This document shows positions 49,956 to 54,164 of a stretch of DNA of 64,000 nt, piece by piece (position 1 is the stretch's first letter; the number at the start of each line of letters is the position of its first letter). A program made the translations under genes and the position numbers. The notes under the pieces were generated by a model. That model saw nothing but the letters and a program-made list of their open reading frames with translations. It had not been told where the DNA came from and made no database searches. Source of the DNA: Bdellovibrio bacteriovorus (GTDB lineage: Bacteria > Bdellovibrionota > Bdellovibrionia > Bdellovibrionales > Bdellovibrionaceae); contig NZ_CP020946.1 of NCBI RefSeq assembly GCF_002208115.1, forward strand, positions 2,046,001-2,110,000, given 5' to 3'.

Positions 49956-49957
49956 CA

Positions 49958-49992
49958 GTAAAAGCCGCTTCAACAGCGGCTTTTACTTTTTC
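49958..49992 (+). terminator. Intrinsic terminator
   Basis: GTAAAAGCCGCT (49958-49969), loop TCAAC, AGCGGCTTTTAC (49975-49986), then TTTTTC. Perfect 12-base stem. Confidence 0.92.
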
Positions 49993-50208
49993 AATCTCAG
50001 CCACCCACTCTCATTACAACAATCGCTGGAAAGCAAGTTTTCAGCCCGTTGCCCTTTTTGTCCTCCCCGCAAAAATCACCCTCTCAGATGCTGCTAAATG
50101 CAAAGCAGTTGGCCCAAAGCTTGAATATTTATCGCATTGGCAGAGAGAGCCCTCGTTCGTCTCATTTCGAGACAGAGAAAATAAGAGCCTTAAAAAGGAG
50201 AGAAACCC

Positions 50209-51006
50209 ATGAAAAGAACAATCACCCTGTCCGTCGCCGCGGTTATGATTTCCCAAAGCGTTGCATTCGCTCAGGTGGATCGTACAGCCGAAATTACCGG
50301 TCAAGCCATCAGTCAGGCGCAACAAAATATTTCGGCATTAAGAACGAATCTTGTTCAATTGGACACGGCTTTGGAACAGACAGCAAAAACCATTGATGCC
50401 CGCGACAACTCTGGCGGTATCACCAATGCTTTGACCATTGCTGGTGCGGCTGCCGGCCTGGGTCTTTCTGTGATCTCTTACTTCTCTGTGAAATCCCGCA
50501 CTGCTGGATCCGGAGTGCTGGGAATGTTCACCGTGGCGGGCTCCCTCGTTGCTTCGATGACCTCCATCGTTACGGGCACAGGCAGCTCTCTGCTTAAAAA
50601 AGATGTCGACACCAAAGCGCTTGCGGACCAGTTGGACGCCATCGAAAAAGAAATTGCCGCAAACAAAGCCGGCCAAAGCAAAGAGGCGTCTGCAATTCTA
50701 AATCAGTTGTCTGATTCAGTCTCTGGCATGAAAGCCTCTCTGAAAGACTATCAACAGGACGAAAACAGCACCGACCGCACAAAGCTGCTGGCACACCTGT
50801 CTCAAGGTATCGGAACGGCTCTGCTGTTCTACTCCCTGACTCAAAAAGACAGCAACAAAGCTGTCGTCATCGGCGGACTTTTGCTGAGCGCCGGGAACCT
50901 GACCCGCATCGTGGCAGGCTTGAGCGATTCTCAGGCTGAATCCGTTTTGAAAGAAATTGAAGCAACCCGTATGAGTCTGCGCACGGCCGCCGCAGTTCTG
51001 GAATAA
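50209..51006 (+). CDS. Exported membrane/coiled-coil protein, first gene of an unknown three-gene cluster
   Basis: A 265-residue protein with a signal peptide (MKRTITLSVAAVMISQSVAFA). Then comes a coiled-coil-like stretch (ISQAQQNISALRTNLVQLDTALEQTAKTID), two close Gly/Ala-rich hydrophobic segments (about 68-85 and 95-118), a second charged helical stretch, and a hydrophobic pair near 200-235. The alternation of glycine-zipper helices and coiled coils resembles pore-forming or envelope-spanning proteins, but no family is recognised. AAGGAG precedes the ATG. It is followed after 5 bases by a second membrane protein and then an ankyrin gene. Confidence 0.7.
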   Translation: MKRTITLSVAAVMISQSVAFAQVDRTAEITGQAISQAQQNISALRTNLVQLDTALEQTAKTIDARDNSGGITNALTIAGAAAGLGLSVISYFSVKSRTAGSGVLGMFTVAGSLVASMTSIVTGTGSSLLKKDVDTKALADQLDAIEKEIAANKAGQSKEASAILNQLSDSVSGMKASLKDYQQDENSTDRTKLLAHLSQGIGTALLFYSLTQKDSNKAVVIGGLLLSAGNLTRIVAGLSDSQAESVLKEIEATRMSLRTAAAVLE

Positions 51007-51011
51007 TCCTG

Positions 51012-51983
51012 ATGCTGAAGCGGACTCTGTGCTTTTTGCTGACGCTGTCTTTGGGCCTTCCGGTGAAGGCTCAAGGCGCAGCTATGCGTTGCGAGTCCGT
51101 TTTCATTCCCAGTCTTAAAGAGGTCCTGGAGACCCTTGACCGCGAAAATTCACAGTATTTATTCAATGGAAAATCCATTCAAGAACACACCTCCACACTG
51201 TCGTGGAGCCGTAAAAGAAAGATTCGCAAGATTCTGAATCAACTGGAAATCGAAAACATCCCGTCCCAGGCCACCCTGGAAAGACAGGCCGTGGAATTGG
51301 GCACCCTGTTATTTGGCGCCAAAGACGCCCCCTCCCGCTGGATAAAAAAGAACGGTCAGGAACGAATGGAAGAATCCGCTGTTCTGATCGTCAAAGAACA
51401 GATCCTGAAAGAAGGCCTGATGAAAACCTGGGGTCAGACTCACGACCCGGCCACGTTAAGTACCCTTTCCAAAGTCATGGACCGGGTCTGGCGCTTTCAG
51501 CACAGCCGCCTCATGGAATTTGCCGGCATTCCGTACTGGTTGCCGAAAATGCCCAACAAAGCCATCAGCAAAGAACTGATGTTCAAGGTCATCCGGGATG
51601 GCTACACCACTCACCAAAAAGAAGTCGCCGTGGCTCTAAGATCCCAGAACTACCGGGACGCCTACAACACTTTTGCAAAGATCTATAAACCCGTGGTCTT
51701 TGCCTTGATTTTTATTTTTATCATCGAACGCTCTTACGACCAGTATCAGGACGAGATCAACAAGACGGTCGACACCATGATCAAGGATCTGCAACAACAG
51801 CGAGAGTCTCTGGATGAAGTCATGCCCCAGGTAAAACTGGAAGAAGGTAAAAATGCCTTCCGTCAGGCACTGGAAGGATTTAAGATGAAGTGGGGCGAAG
51901 AGCCCACGTCCGCAGAGCGCGCCCTGATGCAAACCCGCATCGAAAGCGCCCTGGGACTTCCACAAGGCAGTATCGGAGAATAA
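51012..51983 (+). CDS. Exported membrane-anchored protein, second gene of the cluster
   Basis: A 323-residue protein with a signal peptide (CFLLTLSLGLPVKAQG). Residues 30-220 are a helical, basic domain (LSWSRKRKIRKILNQLE, RWIKKNGQERMEES). A transmembrane helix (VVFALIFIFIIE) lies near 230-242, followed by a C-terminal coiled coil rich in Gln/Glu. No family recognised. It is spaced 5 bases from the gene before and directly abuts the ankyrin gene (TAAATG), so the three are surely translated together. Confidence 0.7.
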   Translation: MLKRTLCFLLTLSLGLPVKAQGAAMRCESVFIPSLKEVLETLDRENSQYLFNGKSIQEHTSTLSWSRKRKIRKILNQLEIENIPSQATLERQAVELGTLLFGAKDAPSRWIKKNGQERMEESAVLIVKEQILKEGLMKTWGQTHDPATLSTLSKVMDRVWRFQHSRLMEFAGIPYWLPKMPNKAISKELMFKVIRDGYTTHQKEVAVALRSQNYRDAYNTFAKIYKPVVFALIFIFIIERSYDQYQDEINKTVDTMIKDLQQQRESLDEVMPQVKLEEGKNAFRQALEGFKMKWGEEPTSAERALMQTRIESALGLPQGSIGE

Positions 51984-52322
51984 ATGTCAGCTGGGGACTG
52001 GAAAGAAATGTACAACGCCGCCGCCACCGGCAATATGGAACTGGTTCAATACCATATCAAAAATGGTGTGGATCCCAACTATCAGCATCCGGAAATCCTC
52101 TCCACCGCTCTGGTCGCCAGCATTACCTATGGTCATCTGGAAATCGCCAAGTTCCTGCTTCAGAATGGAGCCAACCCCACCTTGCTGTCCGAGTTTGATA
52201 ATATGACCCCACTGCAGGCCGCCAAAGCCTTCAATCGACAGGAAATTATCGACATTCTTGTGAAATTCTCGCCTTCTGATACTTTGCTGGAACGCTTTCT
52301 TCGATTTCTGCGCCTGCACTAG
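51984..52322 (+). CDS. Small ankyrin-repeat protein
   Basis: A 112-residue cytoplasmic protein made of about three ankyrin repeats: MYNAAATGNMELVQYHIKNG, ALVASITYGHLEIAKFLLQNG, MTPLQAAKAFNRQEIIDIL, ending with a basic helix LLERFLRFLRLH. There is no signal peptide. It is the last gene of a cluster with two exported membrane proteins. Small ankyrin proteins often bind and block a partner, so an inhibitory or immunity-type role is conceivable (inference). Confidence 0.8.
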   Translation: MSAGDWKEMYNAAATGNMELVQYHIKNGVDPNYQHPEILSTALVASITYGHLEIAKFLLQNGANPTLLSEFDNMTPLQAAKAFNRQEIIDILVKFSPSDTLLERFLRFLRLH

Positions 52323-53210: not shown

Positions 53211-54164
53211 ATGAAAGTCCTTTTGCTCCTGACAGCCCTCGTTCTGACCGTCGCCGGATCCGCCCGCGCCGAGGAGCTGAATTGGTGGGCCGCCACAGCC
53301 GAAGACGTGGAAAAAGCCCCGTGCAAAACATCAGGAGCCCCCTCGGCGCACGCCATGGAGTCCGCGCTGAGCCTGCCGGGCCCCGGGGTTTCCAGGACCC
53401 TTCACGGCATCAGCTTTAAGAATGAAAAGCCCGCACTGTTGGAGCTTTTCTCGGATCTGCACAAACTCGATATCAGCCTGCGGGGCCGTCCCGAGCTGAC
53501 CTTCACCATTGCCTGCGACAAGGTTCTTTGCGCTGTTAAAAAAATCTATGGCGATAACGAAGGGGTGCAACTGCTGTATCTGCTAAAGACCTTTGGTTTT
53601 AACGGTTCGCACCTGCGCACCAAGCTGGCTTCACCCTGGCGCTCTGATGAGCTGAACGAGATCCTGCAGGCTTTGGCCGACTATCCATTGCATCTTTACC
53701 CGGTGGAATACAACAAACGCCTGATCCACTTCACGCGTGGCGCACGCTATGGCTTCGGTCAGGACGTGGTGGCCAACGCCAGCATGGAAGTCTTTGACCT
53801 GTGGAATGAACTTTCCGCCCCGGAACGCCAGCAGACCTTTTTGCATGAACTGGGGCACACGCTGGCCTATCGCGGAAAGCTTGATACTTCGGCTGAATGG
53901 CTGCGCCTGGGAGGCTGGCAGGAAACAAGCCGCACCGTGAAAGGCGTCCTTTACCGTGAATACACACTGCGGGATCCCTCCAAAGCTGTTTCTGAATACG
54001 GGAAGCTGAACCCGTCCGAAGACTTTGCGGAATCCGTGGTGGCCTATCGATTTACGGGGCGCCGATTGAAAGAGCTTCAGCCGCAAAAATACGAATTCCT
54101 GAAAAAACAGGTGTTTGCCTCCCAGGAATATTTGTCGCAAGATCAATGCAGTTCCTCACCTTAG
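53211..54164 (+). CDS. Secreted putative zinc metalloprotease
   Basis: A 317-residue exported protein (signal MKVLLLLTALVLTVAGSARA). The zinc motif FLHELGHTLAYRG places HExxH at 212-216, and NPSEDFAESVVAYRF near 267-281 supplies the downstream acidic ligand typical of gluzincin-like enzymes. Four Cys occur. An endopeptidase role in the periplasm or outside the cell fits a predator (inference). It is followed after 9 bases by an SRPBCC gene. The family name is unknown to me. Confidence 0.75.
   Translation: MKVLLLLTALVLTVAGSARAEELNWWAATAEDVEKAPCKTSGAPSAHAMESALSLPGPGVSRTLHGISFKNEKPALLELFSDLHKLDISLRGRPELTFTIACDKVLCAVKKIYGDNEGVQLLYLLKTFGFNGSHLRTKLASPWRSDELNEILQALADYPLHLYPVEYNKRLIHFTRGARYGFGQDVVANASMEVFDLWNELSAPERQQTFLHELGHTLAYRGKLDTSAEWLRLGGWQETSRTVKGVLYREYTLRDPSKAVSEYGKLNPSEDFAESVVAYRFTGRRLKELQPQKYEFLKKQVFASQEYLSQDQCSSSP

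What the first reader, a model, noticed from the sequence alone, without database searches (positions are those of the whole stretch)
50209..52322. Unrecognised three-gene cluster: two exported membrane/coiled-coil proteins and a cytosolic ankyrin protein
Spacing of 5 and 0 bases shows tight coupling. The first protein has glycine-rich helix pairs and coiled coils like pore formers, the second a signal peptide, one late membrane helix and a coiled coil, the third is a tiny ankyrin repeat with no export signal. The layout could be an envelope machine with a cytoplasmic regulator, or an effector with immunity. No family was recognised.
Basis: inference. Interest (0 to 1): 0.55.

Follow-up and report, generated by a model that had tools for sequence, protein, structure and literature searches.

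The report
Paired envelope genes plus unrelated ankyrin
Two neighbouring genes of a predatory bacterium form an old, undescribed pair of exported, membrane-associated helical proteins that recur together across its relatives, while the small ankyrin gene behind them is an independent neighbour; one of the pair begins with an unusual single-cysteine tag that also appears on other exported proteins.

Summary
The three genes are real, correctly placed and under purifying selection, but they are not one system. Genes 1 and 2 are a conserved pair. The ankyrin gene is separate: it follows the pair in only 3 of 14 close pair loci, and 13 of its 16 orthologues lie elsewhere. No Pfam, NCBIfam, PHROG, PADLOC or PDB family fits genes 1 or 2. 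AlphaFold models were too weak to use.

The pair is ancient. In 31 of 38 gene-2 loci of the order an adjacent ORF has gene-1 architecture (signal peptide, membrane hairpin), against 18 of 223 control ORFs. Best reading: an inner-membrane-anchored periplasmic two-protein complex of unknown duty; effector-immunity with the ankyrin is unlikely.

Lead outside the finding: mature gene 2 begins with an invariant C-x-x-[VIL]-F whose cysteine is its only one (24 of 25). The same start occurs on exported proteins with unrelated domains (papain-like, Fic, WD40, glutaminase, S33 hydrolase), 16 of 19 without other cysteine versus 62 of 235 controls. An unbiased count gave only p = 0.12, so the tag stays a hypothesis.

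The parts
49957..49987 (+). terminator-like stem-loop ending the upstream gene, so the pair probably starts a new unit
   Evidence: 13-pair stem followed by a T run
50209..51006 (+). gene 1: signal peptide, helix, membrane hairpin, long helical stretch, second membrane hairpin, tail; no cysteine
   Evidence: no family
50428..50571 (+). gene 1 hairpin 1 (residues 74-121), loop net positive
   Evidence: hydropathy
50788..50913 (+). gene 1 hairpin 2 (residues 194-235), loop net positive
   Evidence: hydropathy
51012..51983 (+). gene 2: signal peptide, N-terminal C-x-x-V-F, helical domain, late hydrophobic helix, charged C-terminal helix
   Evidence: no family
51090..51104 (+). gene 2 residues 27-31, CESVF: C27 and F31 invariant in 25 of 25 aligned proteins; sole Cys of the mature protein
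51675..51725 (+). gene 2 hydrophobic segment (residues 222-238)
51984..52322 (+). ankyrin-repeat protein, 112 aa, no signal peptide; independent conserved gene, adjacent to the pair only in three close genomes

Best explanation
Genes 1 and 2 are one two-gene unit. Shown: they are adjacent and conserved, and have no described family in the libraries used. Inferred: both are exported by Sec. Gene 1 is held in the inner membrane by one or two hairpins with small cytoplasmic loops and projects helices into the periplasm. Gene 2 folds as a helical periplasmic protein that docks on gene 1 through its late hydrophobic helix, giving a membrane-anchored periplasmic complex. Its unpaired N-terminal cysteine is free for modification, sorting or an intermolecular disulfide. 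The ankyrin protein is a cytosolic protein of separate history that came to lie behind the pair in the ancestor of three close genomes; any link to the pair is limited to that clade. What the complex does is not known.
For: Adjacency: 31 of 38 gene-2 loci of the order have a neighbouring ORF with gene-1 architecture, mostly 0-30 bases upstream on the same strand; control 18 of 223; p = 5e-21 (loci of one genus are related, so the p is not from independent events). It holds at 15-22% identity to the window protein. Distances between loci agree for the two genes, r = 0.95 over 153 comparisons (species relatedness adds to this), and the second pair of G002 resembles that of G008 more than its own first pair in both genes (0.52/0.53 against 0.40/0.42). 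Hairpin loops of gene 1 are mostly net positive, as expected for cytoplasmic loops after a cleaved signal peptide. One Cys in mature gene 2 in 24 of 25; none in 20 of 22 gene-1 proteins, so no disulfide within gene 2 and, in most, none to gene 1.
Against: No reliable structure: mean pLDDT 54.7 and 47.7, no Foldseek match at E <= 0.001. The late helix of gene 2 has more K+R on its N side (mean 2.24 against 1.08) and more D+E on its C side (2.60 against 0.92), the reverse of what a stop-transfer anchor after a cleaved signal peptide should show. No gene-1-like neighbour was recognised in 7 of 38 loci of the order and in 12 of 15 outside it. No expression, localisation or binding data.
Confidence: 0.5

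Rival explanations
1. Two-part helical pore-forming toxin released against prey: gene 1 carries the membrane-inserting hairpins, gene 2 is the partner, as in bipartite alpha-pore-forming toxins.
For: Two adjacent exported helical proteins, hydrophobic hairpins flanked by helices; faster evolving than their surroundings (genes 1 and 2 71-75% identical to G006, against 87-97% for the ankyrin and four further genes tested).
Against: No Pfam, PHROG or PDB profile match; the toxin component AhlC appeared only at E 0.71 in a search with a weak model. Short forms of gene 1 are about 155-195 aa, smaller than known members (sizes recalled). Hairpin charge pattern fits a Sec-inserted inner-membrane protein.
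Confidence: 0.15
2. The trio is a unit in the clade of the three close genomes: the ankyrin binds a cytoplasmic part of the pair as regulator.
For: Direct junction of gene 2 and ankyrin kept in G000, G002 and G006; all under purifying selection.
Against: 13 of 16 ankyrin orthologues lie elsewhere and 11 of 14 close pair loci lack it; it evolves more slowly than the pair. Predicted cytoplasmic parts of the pair are small loops.
Confidence: 0.15
3. Effector with ankyrin immunity protein, as in Bd3459/Bd3460.
For: An ankyrin self-protection protein is known in Bdellovibrio (PMC4686830, passages).
Against: That protein has a signal peptide, six repeats and conserved synteny with its target. Here: no signal peptide, about three repeats, no conserved synteny, no enzyme domain in the pair.
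Confidence: 0.04

Closest known systems
Bd3460 ankyrin self-protection protein with Bd3459/Bd0816 (PMC4686830)
   Same: small ankyrin protein encoded directly behind an exported protein in Bdellovibrio
   Different: Bd3460 is exported, has six repeats and conserved synteny with an endopeptidase gene; this ankyrin has no signal peptide, about three repeats and no conserved partner
Bipartite and tripartite alpha-pore-forming toxins (AHL, YaxAB, ClyA group; recalled)
   Same: adjacent exported helical proteins with hydrophobic hairpins
   Different: no sequence or fold support; hairpin charges fit inner-membrane insertion; short gene-1 forms
Bacterial lipoproteins (lipobox; recalled)
   Same: conserved cysteine near the mature N-terminus
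   Different: no lipobox: 0 of 28 tagged N-termini match it; the Cys lies a few residues after the likely Ala-x-Ala cleavage site and is followed by x-x-[VIL]-F

Membership tests
Ankyrin self-protection (Bd3460 type) | signal peptide on the ankyrin protein | tested here: not met
   no hydrophobic leader at the start of the 112-aa protein
Ankyrin self-protection (Bd3460 type) | conserved synteny with the exported target | tested here: not met
   3 of 16 orthologues next to the pair
Ankyrin self-protection (Bd3460 type) | binds and inhibits an exported enzyme | not testable with these tools
   genes 1 and 2 have no enzyme family
Alpha-pore-forming toxin | profile or sequence match to the family | tested here: not met
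Alpha-pore-forming toxin | long helical bundle with hydrophobic head | tested here: inconclusive
   all-helical model with mean pLDDT 54.7; no Foldseek match at E <= 0.001
Alpha-pore-forming toxin | permeabilises membranes | not testable with these tools
   needs purified protein
Lipoprotein | lipobox [LVI][ASTVI][GAS]C | tested here: not met
   0 of 28 rows of A8, gene 2 among them
Ankyrin-repeat protein (fold) | ankyrin repeats above curated cut-off | tested here: met
   Ank_2 47.6 bits against cut-off 27.3

The most novel reading that the evidence does not exclude
The predator's order uses a non-lipoprotein, single-cysteine N-terminal tag, signal peptide then C-x-x-[VIL]-F, as a sorting or covalent attachment signal for a small set of exported proteins with unrelated domains (papain-like, Fic, glutaminase, alpha/beta hydrolase, WD40, peptidase-like, flavoprotein-like). 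Gene 2 is a widespread carrier, and the gene-1 membrane-hairpin protein is its dedicated partner in the membrane.
Probability: 0.3. Interest if true: 0.8.

Novelty: categorically new. Interest (0 to 1): 0.5.

Why it matters
The pair is a conserved gene unit of predatory bacteria and their relatives that none of the libraries used here describes, so it is a clean knock-out target. If the shared cysteine tag is a real signal, it would point to a protein-targeting route unlike lipobox lipidation and would list candidate exported enzymes of predators, a class that is hard to recognise at present. 'Categorically new' refers to the absence of any known family for pair and tag; the function itself is not shown.

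Tried and rejected
Profile searches: Pfam, NCBIfam, PHROGs, PADLOC, Pfam on 25 gene-2 and 22 gene-1 proteins, PDB profiles: nothing beyond scattered hits below curated cut-offs. Structure: too weak; Foldseek not interpretable. Viral contigs: no relative. A general export tag was tested on stretches of five genomes and not supported: C-x-x-[VIL]-F at the mature start in 3 of 433 signal-peptide-like ORFs (window gene 2 removed) against 4 of 1959 control windows, p = 0.12; all 3 in G043, p = 0.059 there. The first cut was dominated by gene 2 itself. A lipoprotein reading was rejected. Effector-immunity rejected.

Rows left out: one search used 53 loci chosen by me (38 of the order, 15 outside). 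Not included: G058 (contig edge), G054, the hits that match only the N-terminus (L166-L179, L181, L182), and gene-2 hits outside the order that were not fetched. L124 and L251 fail the automatic gene-1 test although an exported helical ORF is adjacent, L129 carries masked residues; all three are counted as misses. The tagged proteins were picked with a profile of the tag, so their having the tag proves nothing; only their lack of other cysteines is an independent measure. Of 16 regions fetched, 15 showed a tagged ORF (not L352). In one search, L293 could not be read and is counted as a miss. For the own-genome match at 1867070 no tagged ORF could be read, the locus being too short. and include only ORFs found by simple scripts of mine, not by a trained gene or signal-peptide predictor.

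Full report
What is there. The three ORFs are at the stated coordinates with gaps of 5 and 0 bases. Gene 1 (265 aa) has a signal peptide, two hydrophobic hairpins and long helical stretches; gene 2 (323 aa) has a signal peptide and one late hydrophobic segment; gene 3 (112 aa) holds ankyrin repeats without a leader. dN/dS between three genomes is 0.065-0.119 for gene 1, 0.109-0.151 for gene 2 and 0.072-0.127 for the ankyrin. A terminator-like stem precedes gene 1, and the leader is largely conserved in the three genomes.

The ankyrin is not part of the unit. Among 59 related genomes gene 2 is found in 19, gene 1 in 13, the ankyrin (any match) in 36. Close gene 1 + gene 2 pairs are seen at 14 loci in 13 genomes; the ankyrin follows in 3 (G000, G002, G006). 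Sixteen genomes have an ankyrin orthologue of 56% identity or more; in 13 it lies in another neighbourhood, with no neighbour from the finding's surroundings within about 7 kb.

The pair is old. A profile of gene 2 finds it in 32 of 140 genomes of the order, and a broader profile in 66 of 368 of the phylum, weaker matches to the N-terminus alone included. Even where gene 2 is only 15-22% identical to the window protein, an ORF with gene-1 architecture usually stands beside it. An automatic test (signal-peptide-like start, 130-380 aa, two further hydrophobic segments as a hairpin) finds such a neighbour in 31 of 38 gene-2 loci of the order against 18 of 223 signal-peptide-like ORFs of 200-450 aa in 60 stretches. 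Outside the order it is 3 of 15, not different from control (p = 0.13), all three on the opposite strand. Distances between 18 loci correlate at r = 0.95 for the two genes; shared species history contributes. G021 has two tandem gene-1 copies.

How it may work. No family was found in Pfam, NCBIfam, PHROGs, PADLOC or the PDB. AlphaFold models from four sequences each were weak (mean pLDDT 54.7 and 47.7) and fold searches gave nothing at E <= 0.001. From sequence: hairpin loops of gene 1 are mostly net positive, as for an inner-membrane hairpin with cytoplasmic loop. Gene 2 has a late hydrophobic helix whose flanks are charged the wrong way round for an ordinary stop-transfer anchor (N side K+R 2.24, D+E 0.92; C side 1.08, 2.60; 25 proteins), so it may pack against gene 1 rather than span the membrane alone. 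I therefore favour a membrane-anchored periplasmic complex; this is inference.

The cysteine tag. C27 and F31 of gene 2 are invariant in 25 aligned proteins, and that Cys is the only one of the mature protein in 24 of 25. Weak hits of the gene-2 profile that match only or mainly the N-terminus led to 17 loci with other proteins (L166-L182), all with signal peptide and C-x-x-[VIL]-F; this set was chosen by the profile. Pfam finds Fic, papain-like peptidase, WD40 and, in one of two, Gln_deamidase_2 above cut-off, with sub-threshold transglutaminase and pyridine-nucleotide oxidoreductase matches, and S33 hydrolase, papain-like peptidase and DUF2252 in a second set of ten, seven of which had no family.

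Tests of the tag. For: homologues of the flavoprotein-like protein keep it in 9 of 11 matches, the query included; of the five whose alignment begins after the tag, 3 keep it and 2 read C-x-x-L-L. Homologues of a protein with an HEYGH sequence keep it in 13 of 17 matches, query and a 97% copy included, though most of those alignments overlap the tag. A profile of 28 tagged N-termini finds 5 places in the window's genome at E <= 2e-4 and then nothing until 0.095, and matches in 33 of 191 phylum genomes, 30 of them in the same order. Nineteen tagged proteins not used in that profile have no other cysteine in 16 cases, against 62 of 235 soluble-like exported ORFs (p = 8e-7); in G043 alone 11 of 13 against 10 of 54. 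None of 28 tagged N-termini matches a lipobox. Against: an unbiased count in stretches of five genomes is 3 of 433 against 4 of 1959 control windows, p = 0.12, so the tag is rare and its excess is not established; G043 drives most of it.

Literature. PMC4686830 (passages) describes Bd3460, an exported six-repeat ankyrin protein with conserved synteny to its target; the present ankyrin lacks all three features. PMC11656739 (passages) had no hit for ankyrin, coiled, hypothetical protein or signal peptide. Searches (listings only) showed no paper on this pair or tag; subscription papers are not covered, so this is no proof of novelty.

Noticed in passing
window 51090-51104; L166-L182, L268, L281, L298, L342-L351, L353-L357: Signal peptide followed by C-x-x-[VIL]-F (M in one) on exported proteins with unrelated domains, usually the only cysteine of the mature protein.
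   Followed up: partly
L168 and L169 (G059 contig 3, about 173900-183600): Three tagged proteins within about 10 kb, two of them adjacent (one with WD40 matches) and one of 1244 aa.
   Followed up: no
window 53211-54164: Protein with a signal peptide and HELGH, a zinc-peptidase-like motif, close downstream; no Pfam family above cut-off.
   Followed up: no
window 50090-50208: Leader before gene 1 is largely conserved in three genomes although gene 1 itself falls to 71% identity.
   Followed up: no
L089 9109-10747: Two tandem, diverged copies of gene 1 before one gene 2 in G021.
   Followed up: no
L068-L080: The small ankyrin gene is conserved (53-68% identity) but sits in different neighbourhoods in 13 genomes, next to a methyltransferase-like gene in three of those read.
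   Followed up: partly
L127 3-2634; L096 7537-9979: Gene 1 and gene 2 followed by a further exported protein; in L096 it begins CESLF after the signal peptide, in L127 it has HEQLH.
   Followed up: no
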